A stretch of DNA of 64,000 bases from Leptolyngbya sp. PCC 6406 (GCF_000332095.2 NZ_KI913949.1:4000869-4064868); one strand, 5' to 3'. Positions 5,532 through 19,931 are shown, numbered from the stretch's first letter. The notes: generated by a model not told the origin, from the letters alone. Translations and numbers: made by a program.

Positions 5532-5618
5532 CTTTCTTTCCCTTGTGGATCAACCCAAGGGGTATCGAAGGGATCCGATTTTTGAGTATTCTCCTAGGTG
5601 GCCTTTAGCGGGACTCTT

Positions 5619-6395
5619 ATGCTAGATCTCACTGGAAAAAACGCCCTCGTCACCGGAATTGCCAACAACCGCTCCATTGCCTGGGGCATTGCCCAACAGC
5701 TCCATGCCGCAGGAGCCAATCTGGGGGTGACCTATCTACCCGACGACAAGGGCAAGATGGAAAATAAGGTGCGTAGCCTAGTAGAGCCCCTTGCCCCCTC
5801 CCTATTTCTGCCCTGTAATGTGCAGGATGATGGCCAGGTCACCGCTACCTTTGATGCGGTAAATGCAGCGTGGGGCAAGCTGGATATCTTGATTCACTGT
5901 CTGGCCTTTGCCAATCGAGATGATCTCATGGGGGACTTTAGCGCCGTTTCCCGTCAAGGATTTCAGACCGCCCTGGATATTAGTGCCTATTCTCTGGTCA
6001 GTTTGGCGCGGGGGGCAAAACCCCTTATGACCAGTGGTGGCAGCATTGTTACCCTCACCTACCTGGGCGGCGTGCGGGTGGTGCCTAATTACAACGTCAT
6101 GGGTATTGCCAAGGCTGCCCTGGAAATGAATGTGCGCTACTTGGCCGCTGAAATGGGGCCGCAACAAGTGCGGGTGAATGGCATTTCAGCGGGTCCGATT
6201 CGGACCCTAGCGTCCTCAGCGGTGGGGGGTATTTTAGACATGATTCACCACGTTGAGGCGGTGGCTCCCCTGCGGCGGACAGTGACCCAACAGGAAGTGG
6301 GCAATGCGGCGGCTTTTCTCAGCAGCGACTTAGCCAGTGGCATCACCGGGCAGATTCTCTATGTAGACTCTGGCTATGAAATTATGGGGATGTAG
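5619..6395 (+). CDS. fabI: enoyl-[acyl-carrier-protein] reductase (NADH)
   Basis: FabI catalyses the last reduction of each fatty-acid elongation cycle in the cytoplasm. From the ATG at 5619 it has 258 residues, opening MLDLTGKNALVTGIANNRSI, the FabI dinucleotide-binding loop. The active-site Tyr-x6-Lys is visible as YNVMGIAK, and the C-terminal FLSSDLASGITGQILYVDSG is typical. An in-frame GTG at 5598 would add seven residues not usual in the family. It is a single gene, with no fab neighbours. Confidence 0.96.
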   Translation: MLDLTGKNALVTGIANNRSIAWGIAQQLHAAGANLGVTYLPDDKGKMENKVRSLVEPLAPSLFLPCNVQDDGQVTATFDAVNAAWGKLDILIHCLAFANRDDLMGDFSAVSRQGFQTALDISAYSLVSLARGAKPLMTSGGSIVTLTYLGGVRVVPNYNVMGIAKAALEMNVRYLAAEMGPQQVRVNGISAGPIRTLASSAVGGILDMIHHVEAVAPLRRTVTQQEVGNAAAFLSSDLASGITGQILYVDSGYEIMGM

Positions 6396-6779
6396 AGGGT
6401 GTGGGGGTATGAGGGTGTGAGGGTGGGGGGTTAGAGGGGTGTGAGGGTAAAGGGTGAAGGGTGAAGGGTGTGTGGGGGTGTGAGGAGATTTCGTAGGGGC
6501 AATCCCTTGCCTGTCCTGAGCGAAGTCGAAGGATGGTTGCCCTTGTTGCTGGGTGACCGGTATTGGGGTGTAGGGTAGGGGCGCGGTTTCCGCGCCCAGT
6601 GCAGAATGTGTCTGTAGGGGCAGGTTTGGCTCGTATTGACTGGGGAATCCGGGATGGGAGGCTCAAAACCCGCCCTGCCTAGTTGCCGGGTGACTGCAAA
6701 ATCCATCTATCACTCGGTGTTCTGTGTAATTGCCTAGGAGGGATGGGAATACCAAGGGAGAGGTTTTAGCTCCGAGGTT
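6396..6779. repeat. G-rich low-complexity stretch plus hairpin repeats
   Basis: 6396-6490 is a run of GGGTGTGAGGGTGAAGGG-like words. A perfect hairpin of the genome-repeated type, GGGCGCGG-TTT-CCGCGCCC, lies at 6579-6597. It is followed by the companion inverted-repeat block (GGGGCAGGTTTGGCTCG ... GAGGCTCAAAACCCGCCCTG). The same modules recur at 9663, 11154, 16630, 18391 and 48230. No gene is seen here. Confidence 0.8.
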
Positions 6780-9662
6780 ATGTCTCCAACGCCGCCTTCT
6801 GGTTTCTCCGCCCAGCTCACTGATGTCCTGATCAAGGTTCTGATTACGGGTAGCGGGGGATCGGCGATCTATTTTCTATACGTCAATGAATTGCCCAAGG
6901 CCGCGATCGCGGCCCTAATCGCTGCGGGCGCTTCCCTACTCACCGCCTTTGGCGAGGGGCTGATGGGGCAACTTAAGGGGGGGATGCAACGGCGAGGGGC
7001 GGCCCTAGGGGCAGCGACGGATCAGGCGGTAGAGGGGGCAATGGCCCGCACCTGGGCCAAGCTTTCGGGGGTGCATAAGCAATATCATCGTGCCCTCCAG
7101 TCCCATTGCTACGCCCTAGAGGTGGAGGGGTTCCAAGACCTGCCAGGGCTGGCCCTAGAGGATGTCTTTGTGCCGCTACGGGTGGAATCGGACCAAAACC
7201 TCTGGAGGGCGGTGGATGGTCCCCAGGAAATCTGGCGATTTTTGCCCCGTCGCGATCAAGCTATCGAGACCTATCCCTACCGCCGCATTGTGATCTTGGC
7301 GGCTCCCGGCTATGGCAAGACGACCCTGCTGCGCCATTTGACCCTCACCTTTGTCACCCAGCCTCCGGAGTCGGTGCGGGCGCTGATGCCCATCTTGTTG
7401 CGGTTGCGGGAAACCTACCCACTGATGCGACGACCCCAGGATGATCCTGGTAGCGATCGCCCCATGCACCTGCCGGAACTGGTGGTGCGCCATCTGCGCA
7501 CCCAGGCAGAGTTTAGCCCCTACGCCTCCTTGGCAGAGGCGGATGCCTGGTTTACGGATCAGCTTCAGGGAGGGCACTGTTTAGTGATGCTGGATGGGTT
7601 GGATGAGGTGCCCAGCCTACTGCGGCCTGAGGTGCGGCTATGGGTGGATCAACAGATGAAACGCTATCCCCGCACCCAGTTCATTCTCACCTCACGCCCC
7701 CATGGCTTTGAGCTCCAGCCCGATGATCCCAGCCCTGCGATCGCAGTGGATCTCAAACTGCGGGTTCTGGACTTTACGCCCAACCAAAAGCAAGCCTTTG
7801 TGGAGAAGTGGTACCACACGGTCTTTTGGCGGATGAAGTGGGAGCGATTGTGGCAGGACAGTCTGCGCCGACCGGAGCCGGAACAATTGACCGAGGCCCA
7901 GGCGCGCCTCAAGAGTACTCAAGAGGCCCAGGATAGTGCAGCGGATCTGGTGCGGCAAGTCGTCAACAGCCCCTCTCTGAATGATCTGGCCCGTAATCCG
8001 CTCCTGATCACCATGATCGCCTCCACCCACCGGGCTAAGACCGTATTGCCCAAACGCCGGGTGGAACTTTACGACAAGATTTTTGACCTGTTGCTGGGCA
8101 CTCGCCCCTATGCCAAACGCACCACCCTGACTCTGACGGCGTCGGAATGTCGGGCGGTGCTCCAGGCTCTAGCTTGGCACTTGGCCATGGAAGAGATTAC
8201 TCAGTTTTCCCCGGCCCAGGGGGAGATCTGGATTGCCGAACCCCTAAAACGATGTCTGAAGGAACGGGAGTTGAGCCCTGCCCAGTTTTGGCGAGAGATG
8301 ACGGAGGTAGCGGGGCTGCTGGTGGAAAAGGAACTGGGTCGCTACGAGTTTGCCCATCAGACCTTTCAGGAATATCTGGCGGCGAAGTATCTGCGGGAAT
8401 GCGGTCCGGAGGGGGAGGCATTTTTACTGGAGAAGCTAGACCGCGATCGCTGGCAGGAGATCGTGCGTTTCTATGCTGCCCTAGGGGATGCCACCGCCAT
8501 TATCAACGCCTTGTTGACCGCTGAGGTGACGGAATACAGTCTGCTGCTGGCCCGTCGCTGTATGGAGGAGGGGCGTGAAATCGATCAGGCCGCCCTAGCC
8601 CGTCTCCAGAAGTTGGTGGAAACCTTTACCATTCAAGCCCTGGATCCTATTCAAGGCGCTAATAATCCGGTATTGACCAAGCTGCGAGCTGATCTGCGGC
8701 TGCAACAACGTTTCAGTACTCTGACGCCCCTGACGGAGAGTAGCGCGATGGTCTCCGACCGACTAAAGGCCATCTCGCCCACCTTTATCACCTGGGGCGA
8801 GTATGAGCTGTTTCTCCAGGCCCAGGATACAGGCCAGTTCCACTCCGAGGCAAAGCGGCTGCGCTGCCCTGAGGGCGAGGAAAGTCAGCCCGTCCAAGGC
8901 AGTTCCTGGGAGGATGCCCGCTGGTTTTGTGCTTGGCTCAGCACCCAGGCTAGCCTGCAAAAGGAAGGTCGAGTCTTTAGCTATCGGCTGCCGACGGGGG
9001 CAGAACTTCGCGACATTGATTTCTATTCCTCAATGCTGAGGGACAGTGACGATGAAAGCGCGATCGTCGCCCTTAGTACGAACTTCTACGATCTCCCCCG
9101 GCCCTGGACGGAGCGCCCCACCCCCCCTGGCAATGCCATCTTGGTGGTGCGGGAGGAACTACCGCGTCACTATGAACCCCTGGTGAACTACCTGGCTAAT
9201 TGCCGCTGGGCACAGGCGGATCGGGAAACCGAGGCATTGATGATAGCAATGGCCCCTAGGGGGCAGTCTTTGACTATGACGGAACGGCAGAAGCTAGGTC
9301 CCCTACGGGTGGAGGACATTCGGGGGTTTCCCTGCGAAGACCTGCGGATACTGGATCAACTCTGGGTGCAGTTTAGTGGTGGTCATTTCGGCTTTAGTGT
9401 ACAGCGGCAGATCTATGTGGAAATGGGCAACGCCCTTATGGAGAATCAGTGTGATCTGCGAAAGTGGCATCAGTTTTGTGAGGCGACGGGCTGGCGGCTG
9501 AATGGCACCGTCCGGCAGTATGCCGATTTTGAATTTAGTCTGGCGGCTCCCTGGGGCCATCTTCCTGGTCACCTTTGGTCAGGAGCATCCCAAGATCAGG
9601 GAATTGCAGCGGGAACCCTGGGCAGTTTTCTCTTTTCCCGCGCTAGGGCTTGCGGGCTCTAG
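6780..9662 (+). CDS. NACHT-family STAND NTPase with FGE-like C-terminal region
   Basis: This 960-residue protein has one or two hydrophobic segments at the N-terminus (about 15-60). A NACHT domain follows: Walker A APGYGKTTLL near residue 178, Walker B HCLVMLDGLDEV near 265 and sensor-type FILTSRPHG near 300. Winged-helix/helical regions include LARNPLLITMIA and the FAHQTFQEYLAAKYL motif common after NACHT modules. Residues about 660-950 resemble a formylglycine-generating-enzyme/sulfatase-modifying fold (SWEDARWFCAWLS, YRLPTGAELRDI, and a C-terminal FLFSRARACGL). Bacterial NACHT STAND proteins often act in anti-phage immunity or programmed responses, and that role is inferred here. It is the first of three neighbouring NTPases. 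Confidence 0.85.
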   Translation: MSPTPPSGFSAQLTDVLIKVLITGSGGSAIYFLYVNELPKAAIAALIAAGASLLTAFGEGLMGQLKGGMQRRGAALGAATDQAVEGAMARTWAKLSGVHKQYHRALQSHCYALEVEGFQDLPGLALEDVFVPLRVESDQNLWRAVDGPQEIWRFLPRRDQAIETYPYRRIVILAAPGYGKTTLLRHLTLTFVTQPPESVRALMPILLRLRETYPLMRRPQDDPGSDRPMHLPELVVRHLRTQAEFSPYASLAEADAWFTDQLQGGHCLVMLDGLDEVPSLLRPEVRLWVDQQMKRYPRTQFILTSRPHGFELQPDDPSPAIAVDLKLRVLDFTPNQKQAFVEKWYHTVFWRMKWERLWQDSLRRPEPEQLTEAQARLKSTQEAQDSAADLVRQVVNSPSLNDLARNPLLITMIASTHRAKTVLPKRRVELYDKIFDLLLGTRPYAKRTTLTLTASECRAVLQALAWHLAMEEITQFSPAQGEIWIAEPLKRCLKERELSPAQFWREMTEVAGLLVEKELGRYEFAHQTFQEYLAAKYLRECGPEGEAFLLEKLDRDRWQEIVRFYAALGDATAIINALLTAEVTEYSLLLARRCMEEGREIDQAALARLQKLVETFTIQALDPIQGANNPVLTKLRADLRLQQRFSTLTPLTESSAMVSDRLKAISPTFITWGEYELFLQAQDTGQFHSEAKRLRCPEGEESQPVQGSSWEDARWFCAWLSTQASLQKEGRVFSYRLPTGAELRDIDFYSSMLRDSDDESAIVALSTNFYDLPRPWTERPTPPGNAILVVREELPRHYEPLVNYLANCRWAQADRETEALMIAMAPRGQSLTMTERQKLGPLRVEDIRGFPCEDLRILDQLWVQFSGGHFGFSVQRQIYVEMGNALMENQCDLRKWHQFCEATGWRLNGTVRQYADFEFSLAAPWGHLPGHLWSGASQDQGIAAGTLGSFLFSRARACGL

Positions 9663-9833
9663 GATTTTCCGCGACTGGGTAGGACAGATTTTGAGCCTCC
9701 CATTCTGGATTTCCCAGTCAATACGAGCCAAACCCGCCCCTACGGCGACATTCTGCATTGGGCGCGGAAACCGCGCCCCTACTCCAACACCCCATCTCCT
9801 ATACCATAAAAATCATTCCCCCCAACTCCCGTC
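9663..9833. repeat. hairpin-repeat spacer
   Basis: The spacer contains the inverted-repeat block TTTTGAGCCTCCC...GAGCCAAACCCGCCCCTA and the perfect hairpin GGGCGCGG-AAA-CCGCGCCC at 9760-9778, the same modules as around 6580 and 18456. It separates two NTPase genes and holds no reading frame of its own. Confidence 0.8.
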
Positions 9834-11153
9834 ATGGCCTTAGATGTTAGCCAGTTCTACAAAGCCACCAACCCCAGTCGTCCCCTCCAAGACGATCGCT
9901 ATTACATCAATTTTTCCTCGGTGCGGGGGGGCGACATTGTGGAGGAGCTGGCCCGTACCATTACGCGCCTGTCGCCGGATGAGCCCACGACCCAACTATT
10001 GACAGGGCACATTGGTTCCGGCAAGTCTACGGAGCTGTTGCGTCTGAAGAAGGTACTGGAGGCGGCGGGGTACCACGTGGTCTATTTCGAGTCTGACCGG
10101 GACTTGGAAATGTCGGATGTGGAGGTGACGGACATTTTGCTGGTGATTGCCCGTCAGGTGGCCGTTAGCCTGGAAATGACGGGGGTGACGATGCGCCCCC
10201 CCTATTTTCAGCGGCTGTTTCAGAGCATTGCCGATACCCTGCGAATGCCGGTGGAAATCTCTAATGTCAGTTTGTCGGTGGGGATCGCCACAATTACGAC
10301 CCAGTCCAAGGACAGTGCGGACCTGCGGAGTCAACTGCACCAATATTTGGAGCCCCGTACCCGCAACATTCTGGATGCCATCAATGGGGAACTGCTGGAA
10401 CCCGCGATCGCCCATCTCAAACAACTGGGAAAAGCCGGGTTAGTGGTGATTGTGGATAACCTAGACCGGGTTTCCAGCAGCCGCAAACTGGGGGACCGGC
10501 CCCAGCCGGAATATCTGTTTGTGGATCGGGGGGATCAGCTTAAGCGCTTGGGCTGTCACCTGCTGTATACCATTCCCCTATCCCTGGCCTTTTCCGATGA
10601 TTTGCCCCTGTTGACCAATCGCTTTGGCGTCAGCCCCTCGGTGTTGACGATGGTGCCCGTCATCGATCTAGAGGGCAACTGTCAACCGGAGAGCTTAGCC
10701 AAGCTACGGCAGATGGTGCTAGCGCGGGCCTTTCCTGATTTGGGAGAGCGCGATCGCATTTCCCATTTAGAGGAAGTCTTTGACCATAGCGATACCCTGG
10801 ACCGCCTCTGCACCATTAGCGGTGGCCACATGCGAAACCTCGTGCGCTACCTCTATAGCTGCCTCCGCAAGCACGATCCCCCCCTGGGGCGCGATACCCT
10901 AGAGCGCGTCATCCGCGATGAACGCAATGATTTACTCGGACTGGTGAACGCCGAGGAATGGCAACAACTTTTCCGCGCCGTCAAGGCCCGCACCCTGCAA
11001 GGAGACAGCGACTACAACAGCTTGCTCCGCAGCCTGTTTCTCTACGAATACCGCGACAACCGGGGGCGCTGGGTCGATATCAATCCCGTTTTGGCGGAGA
11101 CGGATACTTTTCGGGAATGGCGGGCGGGGGAGGGGGAGGGAGTGATGGGGTGA
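9834..11153 (+). CDS. AAA-type P-loop ATPase (439 aa)
   Basis: Starts MALDVSQFYKATNPSRPL. A P-loop LTGHIGSGKSTELLRL lies near residue 57, and a Walker B-like VVIVDNLDRV near residue 205 ends in Asp-Arg rather than Asp-Glu. The pattern LLYTIPLSLAF and a helical C-terminal region (SGGHMRNLVRYLYSCLR) resemble Orc/Cdc6- or KAP-like STAND-related ATPases. No DNA-binding domain was recognised. It lies between the NACHT gene and the TPR-nSTAND1 gene on the same strand, so a joint role is inferred. The last residues (GEGEGVMG) and the stop are formed by an 8-bp tandem repeat (TGATGGGG), so the C-terminal tail is repeat-derived. Confidence 0.8.
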   Translation: MALDVSQFYKATNPSRPLQDDRYYINFSSVRGGDIVEELARTITRLSPDEPTTQLLTGHIGSGKSTELLRLKKVLEAAGYHVVYFESDRDLEMSDVEVTDILLVIARQVAVSLEMTGVTMRPPYFQRLFQSIADTLRMPVEISNVSLSVGIATITTQSKDSADLRSQLHQYLEPRTRNILDAINGELLEPAIAHLKQLGKAGLVVIVDNLDRVSSSRKLGDRPQPEYLFVDRGDQLKRLGCHLLYTIPLSLAFSDDLPLLTNRFGVSPSVLTMVPVIDLEGNCQPESLAKLRQMVLARAFPDLGERDRISHLEEVFDHSDTLDRLCTISGGHMRNLVRYLYSCLRKHDPPLGRDTLERVIRDERNDLLGLVNAEEWQQLFRAVKARTLQGDSDYNSLLRSLFLYEYRDNRGRWVDINPVLAETDTFREWRAGEGEGVMG

Positions 11154-11752
11154 TGGGGTGATGGGGTGATGGGGTGTTGGCGTTGGCGTTGGCGTTGGCG
11201 AAGCCACTCCCTGGGAGTTAGCCTGCCCGGAGGGCTTAGGGGTGATGGGGTGGAGGTGAGAGAGTTTTGAGTTTTGAATTGAATTTCCCGTAGGGGCGCG
11301 GTTTCCGCGCCCAATGTAGGATGCCGCCGTAGGGGCGTGGTGCCCGCACCTGATGCAGGATGCCGCCGTGGGGGCGCGGTGCCTGCGCCCTTACGGAAAA
11401 CTCGGGACTCTCCCACCCCAAAGCCCTCGGGGCAGGTTATGCCTTTCTTGCTTGAATGCCGTTAGGCCATCTGCCCCTAAGCCCTGATGCCTTCGGCATC
11501 GCCACACGAACGGGCAGGCTACACCTTTCTTGAATACCGTTAGGTATCACCCCGCCTTCCTCTTCCCCTCTGCATTGGGCGCGGAAACCGCGCCCCTATC
11601 CCATCATGGGTCACGCGGCAACAAGGGCAACCACTACGGGAAATTTAATTCAAAACTCAAAACTTCAAATTCCTGTCACCCCCTACCCCAAAGCCCTCCG
11701 GGCAGGCTCCGCCAACACCCCCCTACTCCATCACCCCATCTCCCCACCCCCC
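11154..11752. repeat. 599-bp repeat-filled spacer
   Basis: The stretch holds short tandem repeats (TGATGGGG from about 11140, then TTGGCG four times near 11177-11200) and a dispersed block CCACTCCCTGGGAGTTAGCC shared with about 51945. Perfect hairpins of the GGGCGCGG type lie at 11294-11312 and 11577-11595, with two degenerate ones near 11340 and 11370. The frame running into the next gene from 11606 is repeat DNA, not a believable N-terminus. Confidence 0.8.
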
Positions 11753-14494
11753 ATGCCCTCCTACCCCAACGACACGGACCTACTGCGCCATAACCAGAAC
11801 AGCCTGGAGGAACTGCGGACGGTGTTGCGGCGGGAGGCGGGGGAGTTTTCCTTAACTCTGGCGGCCTGCAATTACCATCGTCTGCGGCAGGTGGTGATTG
11901 AGGACTTTCAACTGCGATCGCGGATTACAGTTGTACGGCTTCCGGCGCGAGTACCGGGGTTGTTAGCGGCGATTCAGACCCAGATCGGCAATAGCGTTCC
12001 CCCGGCACTCATGGTGACGGGGTTGGAGGCGGTGGAGGACTTACTGGCTCTGCTGAAGGGGGCCAATCTGTCACGGGATGAACTGCGCAAGCGACTGTCC
12101 TGTCCGGTGGTGCTCTGGATGAATGAGATCGTTCGCCAGCATTTTGTCCGCCATGCGCCGGATTTACGGAGCTTTAGTCCCTCTGCGATCGCATTTACCC
12201 TCCCGCCAGCAGCCCTGATCCATTCCCTAGAGCAGGGCACCAGCCAGTTGTTTCTCAACATTTTGGAATACGAGGGCGATCGCGACCTAGCAGGCACCAC
12301 CACCATTCGTCTGCGGGGCAGCCCCCTGCTCCGCAGTGAACTGGAGTTTGCTCTGCAAGATCTGAAGGTGACGGGTTGGCAACCAGACCCCGATTTAGCC
12401 GCCAGTCTGGACTTTCTACGGGGGCGAGAAGCCCATAGTCGCCTAGAGATGGAGACCGCCCGCACCCATTACCAAGCCAGTTTGAGCTATTGGCAAGCTC
12501 CGGCAGTGCAGACCCGTTGGCCCCAGCCAGCCCCCACGGCTCTAGATCGGGAAGCAGTGCTGCTGCTGCACCTGGGGTTGTGGTGGCGCAGTTATGGGGT
12601 GGTGCAGCGGGCAGCCTATTCCCAAGCGTTACGGCAGGCCCGCCAATATTTCACCGCCTGTCTTGCCATTTTTCGTGAGGAGGATCAAACAGAGCGACTG
12701 GCGCGGTTCATTCACGTCCTGGCAGAGGTTCTACAAAAGCAGCGAGACTGGGAGGCTCTGGAGAGTCTGGCGGTGGAGGGCACAACGCTGCATCAGGAAA
12801 CCCGCGATCTCATCCGACTGGCCAGAGATCACGGCTTCCTAGCGGAGGTGGCGCTGATTAAGGAGGACTGGCTGACGGCCCAAAATGAAGCAGCCCAAGC
12901 CCTTACGCTACTGGAGCAGGCCACCCAGGCAGCAGGGCAGGCCCCAGAAGACCGCACCCTCTCCCGAGCCGTACAGATTGCCGATCGCTTTCAGCGGGGA
13001 TGGTATCGCTTTTTGCTAGGTCAGGCCCAGATCTATTTGAAGGATCCCAAAGCTGCGATCGCATATTTAGAAGCAGCTCGCTGGGAAACAGACCCCGAGG
13101 TAGACCTGACCCTCCACCGTCAGGTATTAGAAGCCCTGATTCACCACCATTTTGATCAGGGGGACTACTGGGAAGCCTTTGATGTTAAGCAGGAACTCCG
13201 CCAAGTGGAGTATCGCTATAATCTGCGAGCCTTCATTGGGGCGGGGGCAGTGCAACCCCACTCTCGCCCAGCGACGCCCAAGGATCGGTCCCCAAGAGCC
13301 ATCCCCCCCGCCCTAGAAGGAACCCCAGAGATTGTCGCGGCGGAAATTCGGGCATCGGGGCGACTAGAGGATGTACAAGCCCTAGTCAACCGCCTAGAGG
13401 ATCAACAACGCCAGTTGATCGTCCTCCACGGCCCATCGGGGGTGGGCAAAAGCTCAGTCCTCAACGCAGGGCTTCTGCCAGCCCTACGGACCCTCTATCC
13501 CCAAGGGCGTACCACTGTCCCGATTCTGGTGCAAACCTATAGTAGTTGGCAGCAAGCCATCGCTCGGGAACTAGAGAAAGCCTTAGTGCCTTGGGAACCG
13601 GAACCCCCAGCCACCGTGACTGCGTTATTGACTGGAGGACCACCACCGCCACCACTCCAGGGGACCGCACTGCGAGCACGGCTCCAGGCAGGACTAGATA
13701 AAAACTGCTTTTTTGTGCTGATTTTCGATCAGTTTGAGGAGTTTTTCTTTGAGGAAAAAGGACCGGAGGAACGGCGCAAGTTTTACGAATTTCTCCAATA
13801 CTGCATCGATCAACCCTGGATCAAAGTCGTGCTGGCCCTACGAGAGGATTACCTCCACCATCTGCTGGAGGCGGAGCGGGTGATCAATCAGGTCAGCCCC
13901 ATGGGGGATGTGGACTTGCTCAGCCGCTCGGTGCGCTATGCCTTGGGTAATTTCTCCTTGGCGGCGGCGGAAGCCGTAATTCGTCGCCTAACGGAAGCAG
14001 CCCAATATCCTCTAGAGGAGGCGCTAATCCATCGCTTGGTAGAGGATCTGGCCGCGCCTCTCGGAGAAGTGCGCCCCATTGAGCTCCAGGTAGTCGGATC
14101 CCAACTTCAGCGCCAGGAAATTGAAACCCTGGCCCAGTATGAGCATCTGGGAGAATTGCCCAAGGAAACCCTGGTACAAAGATTCCTCTCCTATGTTGTT
14201 CATGACTGTGGTCCCCCCCATGAGCGACTAGCCTGGGCGGTGCTCTACCTACTCACCGATGAAGACCGAGATCAACGCCTCTATCGCCCTCTGCGCACCA
14301 GGGAAGACCTAGAGTATGAGCTAGCGCTATTGAAAATCCCCTTTGAGGCCGCCCAACTCGACATGGTGCTGTCGATCTTAGTGGGGTCGGGGCTGGTGTT
14401 TGAGGTTCCGGAGGAACCGGAAGATCGCTATCAGCTTGTCCATGACTATTTAGTCAGCTACGTGCGCCAGGTCCAGACCCCCGAATGGACATGA
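11753..14494 (+). CDS. TPR-like/nSTAND1 NTPase
   Basis: With the ATG at 11753 (MPSYPNDTDLLRHNQNSLEE) the protein has 913 residues. Residues 1-180 form a globular region I do not recognise (LAACNYHRLRQVVIEDFQL). About 210-500 is alpha-helical with TPR-like repeats (LGLWWRSYGVVQ, LAEVALIKEDWLTAQNEAA). A P-loop LHGPSGVGKSSVLNAGLLPA lies near residue 565 and a Walker B-type FFVLIFDQFEEFFFE near 655, the signature of the 'novel STAND NTPase 1' family. A winged-helix-like tail follows (YQLVHDYLVSYVRQ). STAND proteins act as inducible oligomeric switches in immunity or signalling, and that is inferred here. It is the third gene of the NTPase trio. Confidence 0.82.
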   Translation: MPSYPNDTDLLRHNQNSLEELRTVLRREAGEFSLTLAACNYHRLRQVVIEDFQLRSRITVVRLPARVPGLLAAIQTQIGNSVPPALMVTGLEAVEDLLALLKGANLSRDELRKRLSCPVVLWMNEIVRQHFVRHAPDLRSFSPSAIAFTLPPAALIHSLEQGTSQLFLNILEYEGDRDLAGTTTIRLRGSPLLRSELEFALQDLKVTGWQPDPDLAASLDFLRGREAHSRLEMETARTHYQASLSYWQAPAVQTRWPQPAPTALDREAVLLLHLGLWWRSYGVVQRAAYSQALRQARQYFTACLAIFREEDQTERLARFIHVLAEVLQKQRDWEALESLAVEGTTLHQETRDLIRLARDHGFLAEVALIKEDWLTAQNEAAQALTLLEQATQAAGQAPEDRTLSRAVQIADRFQRGWYRFLLGQAQIYLKDPKAAIAYLEAARWETDPEVDLTLHRQVLEALIHHHFDQGDYWEAFDVKQELRQVEYRYNLRAFIGAGAVQPHSRPATPKDRSPRAIPPALEGTPEIVAAEIRASGRLEDVQALVNRLEDQQRQLIVLHGPSGVGKSSVLNAGLLPALRTLYPQGRTTVPILVQTYSSWQQAIARELEKALVPWEPEPPATVTALLTGGPPPPPLQGTALRARLQAGLDKNCFFVLIFDQFEEFFFEEKGPEERRKFYEFLQYCIDQPWIKVVLALREDYLHHLLEAERVINQVSPMGDVDLLSRSVRYALGNFSLAAAEAVIRRLTEAAQYPLEEALIHRLVEDLAAPLGEVRPIELQVVGSQLQRQEIETLAQYEHLGELPKETLVQRFLSYVVHDCGPPHERLAWAVLYLLTDEDRDQRLYRPLRTREDLEYELALLKIPFEAAQLDMVLSILVGSGLVFEVPEEPEDRYQLVHDYLVSYVRQVQTPEWT

Positions 14495-14784: not shown

Positions 14785-16629
14785 ATGATTACCGAAACCA
14801 GTTGGCTGATTCCCCTCTATCCCCTGATCGGAGCCCTGTTGACCATTCCCTGGTCCCCTGGTCTGATCCGACGCACCGGGCCGCGTCCCGCTGGGTACAT
14901 CAATATCGCCACTACGCTGATGGCCTTTATCCATAGCTTACTGGCTTTCCATGCTCTCTGGAACCGCCATTCCTCCCCCCAGTTTTTCTTCGCTCCTTGG
15001 CTCCAGGTGGCGGATCTGAACCTGACCATTCCCTTGGAGGTGTCTGCCATCACCCTGGGGGCGGTGATTTTGATTACGGGGCTGAATTTGCTGGCCCAGG
15101 TTTATGCCATCGGGTACCTGGAAATGGACTGGGGTTGGGGGCGGTTCTTTGCCTTCATGGCCCTATTCGAGGCGGGGATGTGTGCCCTAGTGTTGTGCAA
15201 CTCTTTGTTCTTTGCCTATGTGCTGCTGGAAATTCTCACCCTGGGCACCTATCTGCTGGTGGGCTTTTGGTTTAATCAATCCTTGGTGGTGACGGGGGCG
15301 CGGGATGCTTTTTTGACCAAGCGGGTGGGGGATTTGATCCTGCTGATGGCGGTGCTGGCTATTTACCCCCTGGCCCATACCTGGGATTTTCGTGAGTTGG
15401 CAGCCTGGGCGCAAACTGCTGAGGTGGAGCCCACGGCCATGGCCTTGATTGCCCTGGGACTGGTGGCGGGGCCGATGAGTAAGTGTGCTCAGTTTCCCCT
15501 ACACCTGTGGCTGGATGAAGCCATGGAAGGGCCGCTGCCCAGTACGATCCTGCGCAATGGGGTCGTGGTGGCGACGGGGGCCTGGATACTGGTGAAGTTG
15601 GAGCCGGTGCTGGCCCTGTCTCCAGTGGCAACAACGGGGGCGATCGTTATTGGAGCGGTCACGGCTCTAGGGGCGACCTTAATTGCGATCGCGCAGATTG
15701 ATGCCAAGCGGGTGCTGTCCTATCTTTCCAGTGCCTACATGGGTTTGGTCTTCATCGCGGTCGGGGCACATCAACCGGAAGCAGCCCTGTTGCTGGTGCT
15801 CACCTATGCCCTGGCCATGGCGGCATTGGTTATGGGAACTGGTTCCATCATCCTGTCGGTGATTACCCAGGACTTGACCCAGATGGGGGGCCTGGGGAGT
15901 CGTCGCCCCATTACCGGGTTAACGATACTTGTGGGGACATTTGGTCTGGTGGCCCTGCCGCCCCTGGGGGGATTTTGGGCGCTGTTGCAACTGATGACGG
16001 GACTTTGGACTGACCACTATGGGGGCTTGGTGGTCATCGTCTTGGCTGTGAACGGCTTAACCGCCTTTAGCTTGGCGCGGTTGTTTGGCCTTATGTTCGC
16101 AGGAACCCCCAACCAGATGACCACCCGCGCCCCAGAGCCGATTTGGTTGATGGTGATGCCGATGATGGTGATGGTGGGCTTGACCCTGCACCTGCCCTTG
16201 TTGTTGCAAACCCTGGGGTTATTACCCGCCTGGGCCGAGCTGAATGGAGATCTTGCCTTGGCCTTGACCTGGGTCAGTCTTTCTGGCTTTGGCATAGGCG
16301 CGCTGCTTTACATTGGCCGCTGGGGCGATCGCCCTGACGCAATTGTGCCCTTAAGGCTCCGCAATCTGCTGGCATTCGATTTCTACACCCCCCGCCTCTA
16401 TCGCCTCAGCGTAGTGCTAGGGGTTGATAGCCTCTCCCGGATTGCCGATTGGCTGGATCGCTATCTGGTAGATGGCCTAGTCAATCTGGTGGGGGTGGCC
16501 TCGTTGGTCAGTGGTGAAGCCCTGAAATATAACAACAGCGGTCGCTTCCAGTTCTATATGTTGACGATTTCCCTCTGTGTAGTTGCGATCGCGTTGTTCA
16601 TGACCTGGCAATACTTGCCAGGACTGTGA
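14785..16629 (+). CDS. ndhF3: NDH-1MS subunit NdhF3
   Basis: NdhF3 is the large antiporter-like membrane subunit of the inducible high-affinity CO2-uptake NDH-1 complex in the thylakoid membrane. The 614-residue protein is almost entirely hydrophobic helices. It contains the proton-translocation core GPMSKCAQFPLHLWLDEAM (a Lys plus 'AMEGPLPSTILRNGVVVATGAW') typical of NuoL/NdhF proteins, then a long C-terminal arm ending in a single helix. The downstream partners ndhD3, cupA and cupS fix the F3 rather than F1 identity. The next gene is 243 bp away across repeats, so the operon is loosely packed. Confidence 0.93.
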   Translation: MITETSWLIPLYPLIGALLTIPWSPGLIRRTGPRPAGYINIATTLMAFIHSLLAFHALWNRHSSPQFFFAPWLQVADLNLTIPLEVSAITLGAVILITGLNLLAQVYAIGYLEMDWGWGRFFAFMALFEAGMCALVLCNSLFFAYVLLEILTLGTYLLVGFWFNQSLVVTGARDAFLTKRVGDLILLMAVLAIYPLAHTWDFRELAAWAQTAEVEPTAMALIALGLVAGPMSKCAQFPLHLWLDEAMEGPLPSTILRNGVVVATGAWILVKLEPVLALSPVATTGAIVIGAVTALGATLIAIAQIDAKRVLSYLSSAYMGLVFIAVGAHQPEAALLLVLTYALAMAALVMGTGSIILSVITQDLTQMGGLGSRRPITGLTILVGTFGLVALPPLGGFWALLQLMTGLWTDHYGGLVVIVLAVNGLTAFSLARLFGLMFAGTPNQMTTRAPEPIWLMVMPMMVMVGLTLHLPLLLQTLGLLPAWAELNGDLALALTWVSLSGFGIGALLYIGRWGDRPDAIVPLRLRNLLAFDFYTPRLYRLSVVLGVDSLSRIADWLDRYLVDGLVNLVGVASLVSGEALKYNNSGRFQFYMLTISLCVVAIALFMTWQYLPGL

Positions 16630-16872
16630 TAGTCGTTGTCCCCTGCCACGTCCTGCATCGGGCACAGAAACCGCTCCAGATCAATATCGATCACCCGGCA
16701 CTGGGTAGGGCGGGTTTTGAGCCTCCCATTTGGGATTTCCCAGTAGACACGAGCTAAACCCGCCCCTACGGTGATCACCCCCTCACCCCAATACCCCTAA
16801 GCCCTTCGGGCAGGCTTCGCCCACACCCCAATACCCCATCACCCCATCACCCACACACCCCCACTCCCTACC
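16630..16872. repeat. repeat spacer between ndhF3 and ndhD3
   Basis: The spacer contains a degenerate hairpin module (TGCATCGGGCACAGAAACCG), the inverted-repeat block AGGGCGGGTTTTGAGCCTCCC... GAGCTAAACCCGCCCCTACG at about 16707-16771, and C-rich runs of ACCCCATCACCCC. No gene. Confidence 0.75.
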
Positions 16873-18390
16873 ATGCTCACCCTCCTCATCACCCTCCCCA
16901 TCCTCGGCGCGATCGCACTGGCCTGTTGGCCGGGATGCTCAGCACAGCAAGCAAAATCCGTCGCCTTGGCGGTATCTGGTATAGCCCTGCTATGGACCCT
17001 GTGGCTGTTCACCCAGTTTGACCTGGGAGTAGCGGGAGTACAGATGCGGGAGTTTCTGCTTTGGGTACCCCAGTTGGGATTGCACTATGACCTAGGGCTA
17101 GATGGCCTGTCCCTGTTGATGGTGGCCTTGAATAGTTTTCTCACCTGGATCGCCCTGTGGACTAGCCCTGCGGATATAGAGCGGCCCCGGCTGTTCTATA
17201 GCCTGATGTTGCTAGTGAGCGGCGGCGTAGCCGGAGCGTTTCTAGCCCAGAACTTGCTCTTGTTTTTCCTGCTCTATGAAATTGAGTTGGTGCCCCTCTA
17301 CTTATTAGTGGCGATTTGGGGCGGGGAAAAACGCAGCTACGCAGCGACCAAGTTTTTGCTCTACACCGCCCTGTCGGGGGCGTTGATGTTGGCGGGCTTC
17401 CTGGCCACGGTGCTCTTGACCCAAGGGCTAGATTTTAGCTATGTCAGTGGCTTAGGGCAGTCTCTCCCCCTAGTCACCCAGGCAATTTTATTGCTGATTT
17501 TGGGGGTAGCCTTTGGCATCAAGATTCCCCTGGTGCCCTTCCATACCTGGTTACCGGACACCTACAGCGCCGCCTCTACGCCAGTGGCGATCTTGCTGGG
17601 GGGAGTGCTAGCAAAGTTGGGTACCTATGGTCTGTTCCGCTTTGGCTTGGGGCTGTTCCCGGACGGCTGGAGTTTGCTCGCGCCCTACCTGGCGACTTGG
17701 GCCGCCCTCAGTGTGCTCTATGGAGCGGTGACGGCGATCGCCCAAAAAGACATCAAGCGCATGGTGGCCTACAGTTCCATCGGTCACATGGGCTATGTGT
17801 TGCTAGGGGGCGCGGCTCTGACGGATTTGTCCCTAACCGGAGCGGTGTCCCAGATGGTCTCCCACGGGTTGATTTTGGCCATCCTATTCCACCTAGTAGG
17901 ACTGGTCGAAGCCAAGGTGGGCACCCGCGATCTGGAGGTGCTGAATGGCTTGATGAACCCAGTGCGGGGCTTACCCCTAACCAGTGCCCTGCTGGTGCTG
18001 GGAGGCATGGCCAGTGCCGGTATCCCTGGCCTGGTAGGCTTTGTCACGGAATTCCTAGTGTTCCAAGGCAGTTACGCCACCTACCCCATCCCCACCCTGC
18101 TGGCGGTGGTGGGCACAGGGTTGACGGCAGTGTACTTCGTGATTTTGCTCAACCGTACTTGTTTTGGCAAGCTGGATAATGCGATCGCATACTTTCCTAA
18201 GGTCACTTTCGGGGAACGCTTCCCAGCCCTAGTGCTGGCAGCGCTGATTCTGTTCCTAGGGATTCAACCCAACTGGCTAGTGCGCTGGGGAGAACCCACC
18301 GCCAGCGCCCTGGTAGCCCTAATGACTCCATCCGAGCCCCCCGTTCAGATGGCATTGCAGCCACCCGGCGACAGGCAGGGCGGGTTTTGA
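16873..18390 (+). CDS. ndhD3: NDH-1MS subunit NdhD3
   Basis: NdhD3 is the NuoM-like proton-pumping subunit specific to the CO2-uptake NDH-1MS complex. It has 505 residues, about 14 membrane helices, the conserved Glu in FLLYEIELVPLYLLVAIWGG and the Lys-containing IKIPLVPFHTWLPDTYSAA, both hallmarks of NuoM/NdhD. The final residues (about QPPGDRQGGF) and the TGA stop are encoded by a dispersed repeat (ACCCGGC...GGCGGGTTTTGAGCC), so the natural C-terminus was probably altered by repeat insertion or spread. The gene is flanked by repeat spacers on both sides. Confidence 0.94.
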   Translation: MLTLLITLPILGAIALACWPGCSAQQAKSVALAVSGIALLWTLWLFTQFDLGVAGVQMREFLLWVPQLGLHYDLGLDGLSLLMVALNSFLTWIALWTSPADIERPRLFYSLMLLVSGGVAGAFLAQNLLLFFLLYEIELVPLYLLVAIWGGEKRSYAATKFLLYTALSGALMLAGFLATVLLTQGLDFSYVSGLGQSLPLVTQAILLLILGVAFGIKIPLVPFHTWLPDTYSAASTPVAILLGGVLAKLGTYGLFRFGLGLFPDGWSLLAPYLATWAALSVLYGAVTAIAQKDIKRMVAYSSIGHMGYVLLGGAALTDLSLTGAVSQMVSHGLILAILFHLVGLVEAKVGTRDLEVLNGLMNPVRGLPLTSALLVLGGMASAGIPGLVGFVTEFLVFQGSYATYPIPTLLAVVGTGLTAVYFVILLNRTCFGKLDNAIAYFPKVTFGERFPALVLAALILFLGIQPNWLVRWGEPTASALVALMTPSEPPVQMALQPPGDRQGGF

Positions 18391-18650
18391 GCCTCCCATT
18401 CCGGATTCCCCAGTAGATCCGAGCCAAACCCGCCCCTACGCCACCACCCTGCATTGGGCGCGGAAACCGCGCCCCTACCCCATCACCTCTAAGGCATTGC
18501 CCACCGTTCCCTACTGCCCGCACCTGGATTGGTGGGCATTGCCCACCCTACGGCCAATCCCCTAATACCCCAATCCCCTAATACCCCAATCCCCTAATAC
18601 CCCAATCCCCTAATACCCCCACCCCCCTACCCCATCACCCCCCTACTCCC
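18391..18650. repeat. repeat spacer between ndhD3 and cupA
   Basis: It continues the inverted-repeat block that begins within the ndhD3 end. It holds the perfect hairpin GGGCGCGG-AAA-CCGCGCCC at 18456-18474 and about four tandem copies of a 16-bp unit (CCCCAATCCCCTAATA) at about 18553-18620. No gene. Confidence 0.8.
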
Positions 18651-19931
18651 ATGCCCCTCACCCAAACCCCACCCTCAACCCATCCCCACGCCGATGTCAT
18701 CCATCGCCTAGAGGCGGGCGGTTCCATGCTGCCCGATACGCCGGAAAATCTGATGCAGATCATCGGGATCTACAAGGCTTACGCGGTACCGATGGACTTC
18801 TACTGGCGAGATTTGCTGTACATCGCCGAGCGAGTGTTTCTGAATCCCCTGCCCGCTTTCAAATACTTTCTGCCCCAGGAATATCTGGATCTGCACAACC
18901 ACTATGCGGGGGAGACGGCGGACCTGCGGATCTGGCGCGGTGAAGCCACGGCCCATCCTGAGTTACTGGAATTTATGGAGCAGGGTGAGGTCAAGCGCAA
19001 GCTCCCTAAGTTGCTCCACCACCTCTGGCACGATCGCGTCAATATGGAGTTCGCCGAAGCCTGTATGCGGGCCATGCTGTGGCACCAGGACATGGGCGGA
19101 CGGTTCAATGACTTCCTCTATACGGATGAGTACAAGGCAAACTGCGATCGCGCCATCAACGCCTACTTTAAGCGCAACCCCTTGATGCTAGGGCTGCACA
19201 AACTGTTCCCCGACATGTTCTACGAAAAATGTCGGGAACTGTCCTACTACGCCAACCTAGGACTGTTCTGGGAAGTCATGGCCCCGGTCTTTTTTGAAAT
19301 GTCCGACATCTACGACGAAGGCGGCTTCCAAGGAGTCCCCGATGCCATGAATTTCCTGGTAAATGGCATCTTCGCCGTGGCCGGAAGACCCATTTACCAC
19401 CATGTCTACATCGGCGACGAATGCTTTGAACTGATTCCCAAATCCTGTGGCTTCACCTGGCTCTACGAAGCCGCCCTACCCTACGTGGAAGCAGTGTTTT
19501 ATCGCACCGCTCCCTTCCGGGGGACAAAATCCTACAACGCCCAAGCGGGTCAAGTCCCCCAAGATCAAAAGGATTTCCACTACGGCATCCTCTATGCCGA
19601 TGTTTTCCCCGTCGGTAGCGCCGGGATTCCCCCCACCCTGCTGATGCAGGATATGCTCCACTTTTTGCCCCCCTACTTGCAGGACTACTACCAGCAACAC
19701 TGTCGCGGCGAAGACGACATGCTGATCCAATTGGGGATCACCTTCCAGCGCTCCATGTACAACGTCACCTCAGCGGTGATCCAAGCCCTACGCACCGCCC
19801 TCCTCTACCCCCTGGATGATCCCAACCCAGATCATCGCCAAGCTAACCGCCAATTCTTCGAGGCTCAAATGGATCGCTTCCTCCGCCCTGAAGCCCGCCT
19901 TCGCGACATCCAGCGCCAGGAGTATCGGTAG
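18651..19931 (+). CDS. cupA: CO2 hydration protein CupA (ChpY)
   Basis: CupA is the peripheral subunit of NDH-1MS that sits on NdhF3/NdhD3 and performs vectorial CO2-to-bicarbonate hydration. The 426-residue protein reads colinearly with the Chp family: NLMQIIGIYKAYAVPMDFYW, LPAFKYFLPQEYLDLHNHYAG, the His/Cys-rich KLLHHLWHDRVNMEFAEACM with AMLWHQDMGG expected near the metal site, and VYIGDECFELIPKSCGFTWL. The order behind ndhF3-ndhD3, with cupS further on, supports CupA rather than the constitutive CupB. The first 20 or so residues are Pro/Thr-rich and lie just after repeat DNA, so the start could be a little downstream. Confidence 0.93.
   Translation: MPLTQTPPSTHPHADVIHRLEAGGSMLPDTPENLMQIIGIYKAYAVPMDFYWRDLLYIAERVFLNPLPAFKYFLPQEYLDLHNHYAGETADLRIWRGEATAHPELLEFMEQGEVKRKLPKLLHHLWHDRVNMEFAEACMRAMLWHQDMGGRFNDFLYTDEYKANCDRAINAYFKRNPLMLGLHKLFPDMFYEKCRELSYYANLGLFWEVMAPVFFEMSDIYDEGGFQGVPDAMNFLVNGIFAVAGRPIYHHVYIGDECFELIPKSCGFTWLYEAALPYVEAVFYRTAPFRGTKSYNAQAGQVPQDQKDFHYGILYADVFPVGSAGIPPTLLMQDMLHFLPPYLQDYYQQHCRGEDDMLIQLGITFQRSMYNVTSAVIQALRTALLYPLDDPNPDHRQANRQFFEAQMDRFLRPEARLRDIQRQEYR

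What the first reader, a model, noticed from the sequence alone, without database searches (positions are those of the whole stretch)
6780..14494. Trio of large STAND/P-loop NTPases: possible undescribed defence or signalling cassette
A NACHT protein with N-terminal membrane segments and an FGE-like C-terminal region, an AAA/KAP-like ATPase and a TPR-nSTAND1 protein lie in one orientation, with no unrelated gene between them. STAND proteins with variable sensor/effector ends are known immune switches in bacteria. The combination, with membrane anchoring on one and an unrecognised N-terminal domain on the third, does not match a system I can name.
Basis: partly seen in the sequence, partly recalled or inferred. 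Interest (0 to 1): 0.65.

Follow-up and report, generated by a model that had tools for sequence, protein, structure and literature searches.

The report
Two-gene ATPase switch beside NACHT-GUN4 gene
The three large ATPase genes are real but are not one system: two form an ancient, repeatedly duplicated cyanobacterial gene pair (a working ATPase plus a partner that starts with a 'dead' ATPase-like domain followed by sensor-like repeats), while the third is an unrelated immune-type NACHT gene with a chlorophyll-regulator-like GUN4 tail that happens to sit next to them here.

Summary
Three intact same-strand P-loop genes lie at 6780-9662, 9834-11153 and 11606 (probably 11753)-14494. Their description needs two corrections. 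The C-terminal module of the NACHT protein is GUN4 (E=1.5e-30) behind an FGE remnant, and the 'unrecognised' domain of the third protein is an AAA+/STAND-like fold without Walker motifs.

The trio is not a cassette. No NACHT-GUN4 gene was found beside the other two in 160 other loci, and copies of a dispersed repeat (60 matches in this genome) separate it from them.

Genes 2 and 3 are a real unit. In 58 of 58 relative loci with a downstream ORF, and in 74 of 80 independently gathered loci, the ORC/Cdc6-like ATPase is followed by a gene starting with the same ~145-aa domain (call it P3N). Walker A is present in 61/61 ATPases and 0/59 P3N domains. Behind P3N lie TPR arrays, or TPR+nSTAND1, or TPR+nSTAND1+WD40, often as highly similar tandem DNA repeats. 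The two trees match (r=0.84).

Best reading: an ATPase-pseudoATPase switch with fast-evolving repeat sensors, analogous to but not a member of nSTAND2 two-gene systems. No effector enzyme, defence-island signal or defence-library match was found, so 'defence' is unproven.

The parts
6780..9662 (+). P0001: NACHT STAND protein with FGE remnant and C-terminal GUN4 domain, 960 aa; an independent gene, not part of the conserved pair
6819..6965 (+). Two Gly/Ala-rich hydrophobic stretches at the N-terminus of P0001 (borderline membrane segments)
   Evidence: hydropathy
7284..7817 (+). NACHT NTPase domain (residues 169-346); Walker A APGYGKTT, Walker B LVMLDGLDE
   Evidence: sequence
8772..9008 (+). 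Partial FGE-sulfatase (C-type-lectin-fold) remnant, residues 665-743
   Evidence: the same remnant in relatives L002, L004, L005, L007
9165..9569 (+). GUN4 domain (residues 796-930); keeps the FGFSVQ motif and Phe917 (equivalent of Arabidopsis F191), lacks the LxNxLR porphyrin/bilin motif
   Evidence: PMC8967248, PMC10156173
9834..11153 (+). P0002: intact ORC/Cdc6-STAND-type ATPase, 439 aa, gene A of the conserved pair
10005..10031 (+). Walker A of P0002 (GHIGSGKST); G....GK[ST] present in 61/61 homologues
11007..11141 (+). C-terminal winged-helix-like region of P0002 (AF2: helix, two strands, helix; conserved LEYRD..W.DvNPL)
11753..14494 (+). P0003, gene B of the conserved pair (probable true start Met50; the ORF is open from 11606): P3N + TPR + nSTAND1
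11753..12220 (+). P3N domain: AAA+/STAND-like a/b fold without Walker A or the Walker B Asp; the obligate N-terminal domain of gene B
12413..13285 (+). Degenerate TPR / helical-repeat region of P0003 (approximate limits)
   Evidence: TPR_12 18.8 bits, sub-threshold; homologous position is strong TPR in relatives
13358..14458 (+). nSTAND1 NTPase domain of P0003 (residues 585-951), with intact GPSGVGKSS and VLIFDQFEEFF
   Evidence: sequence
6562..6686 (+). Dispersed repeat, left copy flanking the NACHT gene
   Evidence: 60 matches in the genome
9671..9795 (-). Dispersed repeat, inverted right copy between NACHT and P0002 (84% complementary)
11290..11616 (.). Further repeat copies (11290-11337, 11569-11616) in the gap between P0002 and P0003

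Best explanation
Genes 9834-11153 and 11753-14494 are a two-gene switch. Gene A is an ORC/Cdc6-STAND-type ATPase. Gene B starts with P3N, an AAA+-fold pseudoATPase domain, followed by a sensor/scaffold of TPR repeats (here also a second, intact nSTAND1 NTPase; WD40 propellers in many relatives). Proposed mechanism: P3N docks on the ATPase and may complete a mixed ring or dimer, as inactive subunits do in ORC. The repeat region binds a ligand (a protein, perhaps of an invader or a stressed cell). ATP-driven rearrangement of A, and of nSTAND1 where present, then assembles an active complex whose output goes through recruited proteins or through the winged-helix end of A. Shown: obligate linkage and order, intact Walker A in A, absent Walker motifs and AAA+-like fold in P3N, co-divergence, repeat turnover. 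Inferred: physical contact, ligand sensing, output. The NACHT-GUN4 gene at 6780-9662 is a separate STAND switch that is adjacent by chance.
For: 58/58 downstream ORFs carry P3N; a model built from 31 of them hits all 58 (E<=2.2e-14) and none of the other 1081 ORFs. 74/80 loci of a separate collection likewise, median gap 169 bp, one of the 74 at an unlikely 3.65 kb. Of 20 P3N places that had no partner in the first search, 13 have the ATPase immediately upstream. Many pairs overlap by 4 nt. Walker A 61/61 in A, 0/59 in P3N. AF2 of P3N pLDDT 92.7, Foldseek top hits nearly all AAA+/ORC/STAND. AF2 of A pLDDT 93.7, best hits archaeal Orc1/Cdc6, ORC, CED-4, Apaf-1, DAP3, TnsC, RdrA. Mirror correlation 0.84, 0/999 permutations. 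Tandem repeats 74-93% alike in partner genes. No conserved third gene. NACHT gene unlinked and repeat-flanked.
Against: P3N and A are not detectably homologous by profile (hhalign probability 0.2%), and Foldseek TM-scores for P3N are only about 0.4, with the best E at 1e-3. 6 of 80 loci lack P3N downstream, and a diverged P3N group (L144-L149, E about 1e-24) and L150 lack a clear adjacent ATPase. No effector enzyme, ligand or interaction has been demonstrated. In this genome the pair is split by about 600 bp of repeats, so co-transcription here is uncertain. A shared tree is also expected from co-inheritance alone.
Confidence: 0.6

Rival explanations
1. The three genes are one defence/signalling cassette, with the NACHT-GUN4 protein as the membrane-anchored effector of the pair.
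For: Same strand, contiguous, all STAND/P-loop.
Against: No separate P0001-like gene near the pair in 160 other loci; orthologues of the NACHT gene (40-43% identical) are unlinked to the pair; dispersed repeats flank it; fabI and ndhF3, the outer neighbours here, are not next to each other or to these genes in relatives.
Confidence: 0.04
2. The pair is an anti-phage (abortive-infection) system: TPR/WD40 sense phage proteins, the ATPase pair oligomerises and kills or shuts down the cell.
For: STAND/ORC-class switches with rapidly homogenising repeat arrays resemble Avs/NLR sensors; multiple paralogues per genome (up to about 10); found on cyanobacterial plasmids, one flanked by tyrosine recombinases; one sibling carries NACHT+TPR behind P3N.
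Against: No PADLOC match, no toxic enzymatic domain in any partner scanned, neighbours are ordinary genes with no defence enrichment, not found in phage records.
Confidence: 0.3
3. The pair is a housekeeping or stress signalling regulator of large-genome cyanobacteria; the ATPase's winged helix acts on DNA as in ORC/TnsC/MalT-like STAND regulators.
For: Winged-helix-like C-terminus and best fold matches to DNA-bound ORC/Cdc6 and TnsC; scattered among ordinary genes; present in 47 of 59 relatives (three of them marginal) but largely absent from the small-genome ones.
Against: Many diverged paralogues and highly similar tandem repeats suggest fast-evolving recognition rather than a conserved regulon; STAND winged helices are often regulatory rather than DNA-binding (established knowledge).
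Confidence: 0.3
4. P3N is not a pseudoATPase but an unrelated a/b (Rossmann-like) adaptor domain.
For: Low TM-scores (~0.4), no sequence-profile link to P0002 or to PDB sequences.
Against: Nearly all of the 50 listed top Foldseek matches are AAA+/ORC/STAND/RuvB-type (the exceptions seen are an ISWI remodeller, 5jxt, and a papillomavirus helicase, 1tue), with probability 0.99 at the top; helix/strand order fits.
Confidence: 0.25

Closest known systems
nSTAND2 two-gene counter-invader system (Kaur et al. 2021, PMC8195603, Fig. 6C; Pfam PF20702)
   Same: A stand-alone bicistronic unit of two STAND-class P-loop proteins, one with intact and one with eroded NTP-binding motifs, the inactive one carrying a variable C-terminal part.
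   Different: The PF20702 profile does not match either gene (its single match in this genome is elsewhere); the variable part is TPR/nSTAND1/WD40 instead of GT4 or HEPN effectors; P3N lacks the helical lid.
iSTAND / iSTAND2 proteins of MoxR-vWA ternary systems and BREX BrxB/BrxF iSTAND (PMC7159879, PMC8195603, PMC12839542)
   Same: A compact inactive STAND/ORC-like P-loop domain without Walker motifs and without a C-terminal helical bundle, proposed as sensor/adaptor.
   Different: No MoxR or vWA gene next to the pair; the partner is an ORC/Cdc6-like ATPase and the N-terminal module is fused to repeats.
ORC/Cdc6, CED-4/Apaf-1, DAP3, TnsC, RdrA class of AAA+ ATPases
   Same: P0002 model matches these folds best (E down to 4.2e-7); mixed active/inactive subunits occur in ORC.
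   Different: Sequence identity about 10-15%; no shared domain outside the ATPase and winged-helix region.
STAND-FGS (FGE) NACHT proteins and cyanobacterial GUN4 fusions (PMC8195603, PMC7159879, PMC2853523)
   Same: P0001 = NACHT + FGE remnant + GUN4; NACHT-FGS proteins and GUN4 fused to kinases, caspases, TIR and others are described.
   Different: A direct NACHT-GUN4 fusion is not described in the passages I could read; here it recurs in many cyanobacteria, and its GUN4 lacks the LxNxLR motif.
Npun2340/2341 family of the MNS STAND clade (Leipe et al. 2004, cited in PMC8195603)
   Same: A Nostoc STAND family named after two adjacent gene numbers; it may include one or both genes.

Membership tests
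   No separate P0001-like gene in 160 other loci of the pair
Two-gene ATPase + P3N unit (this report) | ATPase gene immediately followed on the same strand by a P3N-bearing gene | tested here: met
   58/58 and 74/80 independent loci
nSTAND2 two-gene system | Match to nSTAND2 profile PF20702 | tested here: not met
   Only match in the genome is at C1:1278234, outside the window
nSTAND2 two-gene system | One active and one motif-eroded P-loop protein | tested here: met
   Walker A 61/61 in A and 0/59 in P3N; AAA+-like fold
nSTAND2 two-gene system | Inactive partner fused to GT4 or HEPN effector | tested here: not met
   25 partners scanned; only TPR, nSTAND1/NACHT and WD40 stand out
nSTAND2 two-gene system | Conserved arginine finger in both proteins | tested here: inconclusive
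   R334 (SGGHxR) invariant in A; R157 in 58/59 P3N but its geometric role is unknown
MoxR-vWA-iSTAND ternary system | Adjacent MoxR and vWA genes | tested here: not met
   No recurrent third gene; neither appears among the most frequent neighbour families
KAP NTPase family | Clear match to PF07693 | tested here: inconclusive
   21.2 bits against cut-off 20; nSTAND_NTPase5 scores higher but below its own cut-off
KAP NTPase family | Membrane-spanning segments inserted in the P-loop domain | not tested
   Hydropathy was computed for P0001 only
NACHT-clade STAND (P0001) | NACHT domain above cut-off with intact Walker A/B | tested here: met
   35.4 bits against 26.7; APGYGKTT and LVMLDGLDE
GUN4 tetrapyrrole-binding proteins (P0001 C-terminus) | GUN4 domain | tested here: met
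   106.6 bits against 29.2; solved GUN4 structures match
GUN4 tetrapyrrole-binding proteins (P0001 C-terminus) | LxNxLR motif (porphyrin Arg211 in Arabidopsis, bilin Asn) | tested here: not met
   Absent in P0001 and all NACHT-fused GUN4 domains aligned; present in this genome's stand-alone GUN4
Known anti-phage defence systems (PADLOC-DB v2) | Specific match of gene A or B to a defence model | tested here: not met
   Best E for genes A/B 1e-3; the P0001 hit (PD-T4-6) covers only its GUN4 part
Avs-type antiviral STAND | Effector-STAND-TPR in one protein with demonstrated phage-protein sensing | not testable with these tools
   No effector domain recognised; needs phage assays

The most novel reading that the evidence does not exclude
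An undescribed, widespread two-gene immune or stress switch of cyanobacteria (with a distant example in an Acidobacteriota plasmid). A pseudoATPase domain (P3N) that always opens gene B plugs into an ORC/Cdc6-like ATPase encoded by gene A, so that one conserved motor serves interchangeable TPR, TPR-nSTAND1 or TPR-nSTAND1-WD40 sensors whose repeats turn over fast.
Probability: 0.4. Interest if true: 0.7.

Novelty: new variant of a known kind. Interest (0 to 1): 0.5.

Why it matters
If right, P3N gives a clean handle on a family of up to about ten paralogous systems per genome that are annotated only as 'P-loop NTPase' and 'TPR/WD40 protein'. It would be another independent case of an active STAND/ORC ATPase paired with an inactive one, here with recently amplified recognition arrays rather than an enzymatic effector. 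That makes the open question of what cyanobacterial STAND switches detect, and whether for immunity or stress signalling, directly testable. The NACHT-GUN4 fusions are a smaller point: a recurring STAND protein carrying a diverged chlorophyll-regulator domain that has lost its known pigment-binding motif.

Tried and rejected
Trio as one cassette: rejected. The 125-nt inverted repeats around the NACHT gene as ends of a mobile unit: rejected as specific, since the repeat has 60 matches genome-wide, though repeat-mediated rearrangement could explain the juxtaposition. P3N homologous to P0002 by profile comparison: not detected. P3N by PDB sequence search: nothing meaningful. Membership in nSTAND2: profile negative. 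Conserved third gene or effector next to the pair: none. Defence-island association of the pair: no enrichment among 135 neighbour proteins. Presence in phages: none. Promoter/terminator consensus scan: 0 promoter-like sites where 3.4 are expected by chance and terminator-like sites at chance level, so uninformative about transcription units. GUN4 as a proven tetrapyrrole sensor in P0001: not claimed, since the motif is missing.

Full report
WHAT IS THERE. The window lies in a 5.78-Mb cyanobacterial genome. Between fabI (5598-6395) and ndhF3-ndhD3-chpXY of CO2 uptake (14785-19931) lie three intact + strand genes. P0002 (439 aa) is a P-loop ATPase with weak KAP, AAA_16 and nSTAND_NTPase5 matches. 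P0003 (962-aa ORF) has nSTAND1 at 585-951, a degenerate TPR region and an N-terminal region with no Pfam match. Its real start is probably Met50 (11753): homologues start there, and the first 49 codons lie in repeat DNA, residues 8-51 also matching a second genomic site.

THE TRIO IS NOT A UNIT. In 59 genomes, NACHT relatives of P0001 are common but its orthologues do not lie with the pair (for example G033:C11:1657477 against 854633). Among all ORFs of 160 other loci that hold the ATPase or its partner, no separate P0001-like gene was found; the single hit was a NACHT domain inside one long partner protein, L116. Flanks were only about 3-6 kb, so a more distant linkage is not excluded. The NACHT gene is bracketed by 125-nt inverted repeats, but that element has 60 matches in the genome, so it is a dispersed repeat. 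fabI and ndhF3 are not neighbours of each other, of the NACHT gene or of the pair in the relatives checked, so the arrangement is particular to this lineage.

THE PAIR IS A UNIT. I fetched 60 loci holding P0002 homologues down to about 20% identity. They hold 61 ATPases; 58 have a same-strand downstream ORF, and all 58 of these ORFs carry the same ~145-aa N-terminal domain, P3N. A model made from 31 of them finds all 58 with E<=2.2e-14 and none of the other 1081 ORFs. The genes frequently overlap by 4 nt. In 80 loci gathered independently from genome contigs, 74 have P3N downstream, one of them only at 3.65 kb. Conversely, of 20 P3N places without a partner in the first search, 13 have the ATPase just upstream; six of a diverged group (E about 1e-24) and L150 do not. 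P3N occurs in 51 and the ATPase in 47 of 59 relatives, three of the latter marginal. This genome has five complete pairs: at 4.01, 3.53, 4.46, 4.57 and 5.35 Mb on C1. An Acidobacteriota plasmid holds a diverged pair with a 4-nt overlap, its ATPase ORF lacking the N-terminal part.

ANATOMY. The ATPase has Walker A in 61/61 homologues, a DNLD(R) Walker B, the SGGHxR motif and a winged-helix-like end. Its AF2 model (pLDDT 93.7) is closest to Orc1/Cdc6 and ORC, then TnsC, DAP3, CED-4, Apaf-1 and RdrA. P3N models at pLDDT 92.7 as a five-stranded a/b domain; its PDB matches are almost all AAA+/ORC/STAND (E about 1e-3, probability 0.99, TM about 0.4). Strand 1 is followed by Cys-Asn instead of a P-loop, the Walker B acid is replaced by Gly-Leu-Glu, and 0/59 carry a Walker A. 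I therefore read it as a pseudoATPase; the fold evidence is good but not conclusive, and sequence profiles do not link it to P0002. Behind P3N come TPR only (most of the 37 partners without a second Walker A), or TPR with a second STAND NTPase (21), of which at least 13 add WD40 arrays. Several of these arrays are tandem at the DNA level, 74-93% alike (WD40 123 nt, TPR 102/126 nt), so the sensor ends are turning over fast. Pair trees agree (r=0.84, 0/999 permutations), as expected of a unit inherited together.

HOW IT MAY WORK. The most likely mechanism is a switch: P3N docks on the ATPase, the repeats sense, nucleotide exchange assembles the complex. Contact, ligand and output are inference. 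No effector enzyme, no recurring third gene, no defence-library match, no enrichment of defence genes among 135 neighbour proteins and no phage record were found. Some pairs sit on plasmids, one between two integrases. Defence and stress signalling remain about equally likely.

THE NACHT-GUN4 GENE. Near-full-length relatives (L002-L005, L007) share NACHT, usually an FGE remnant, and GUN4; a shorter NACHT-GUN4 form of roughly 740-860 aa recurs, including a 777-aa one in this genome. GUN4 fusions and NACHT-FGS proteins are described (PMC7159879, PMC8195603). The fused GUN4 domains lack the LxNxLR motif that carries the porphyrin Arg and bilin Asn (PMC8967248, PMC10156173), which this genome's stand-alone GUN4 keeps. 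Pigment sensing by P0001 is therefore uncertain.

COMPARISON. The nearest known kind is the nSTAND2 two-gene system (PMC8195603): same logic, but its Pfam profile does not match here and its GT4/HEPN effectors are absent. iSTAND proteins of MoxR-vWA and BREX systems (PMC7159879, PMC12839542) resemble P3N in kind, without the shared partners. I found no description of this pair in the open-access library, which lacks subscription papers, including Leipe et al. 2004 with its Npun2340/2341 family. Hence 'new variant of a known kind'.

LIMITS. ORFs were called mechanically, several partners run off contigs, the genome-contig search kept only the best 80 of 530 relatives (all cyanobacterial), and defence enrichment was judged without a matched control set.

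Noticed in passing
window 6562-6686, 9671-9795, 11290-11337, 11569-11616: A ~125-nt dispersed repeat (GTAGGGGCGCGGTTTCCGCGCCC core) with 60 matches in the genome sits in the gaps around all three genes and supplies part of the spurious first 49 codons of the P0003 ORF.
   Followed up: partly
window 9630-9659 and L002, L004, L005, L007, L008, L016, L019: Many NACHT-fused GUN4 proteins end in a conserved [SF]R[IALV]xxC motif a few residues from the C-terminus, where the stand-alone GUN4 has none.
   Followed up: no
L240:3339-6263: In a Nostoc plasmid a diverged relative of the P0002 ATPase is fused behind a SAV_2336 N-terminal-related region, next to a MoxR ATPase gene: a possible link between this ATPase family and MoxR ternary systems.
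   Followed up: no
L241:5214-7924: An Acidobacteriota plasmid (Acidisarcina pACPOL1) carries a diverged ATPase/P3N-TPR pair with 4-nt overlap; its annotated TPR gene starts too late and misses P3N, and the ATPase ORF lacks the N-terminal Walker A part.
   Followed up: partly
L145:2733-6425, L146:2391-6079, L147:2532-6201: A diverged P3N group (E about 1e-24) lies divergently from a ~220-aa ORF with a weak ATPase-family match (E about 1e-5): possibly a second, differently arranged version of the system.
   Followed up: no
G000:C1:1278234-1278473: A real nSTAND2 (PF20702) match elsewhere in this genome, so both kinds of STAND system may coexist.
   Followed up: no
L012:454-4101: A 1216-aa relative of P0001 has NACHT, GUN4 and a complete FGE domain in that order, suggesting that the FGE/GUN4 tail is reshuffled.
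   Followed up: no
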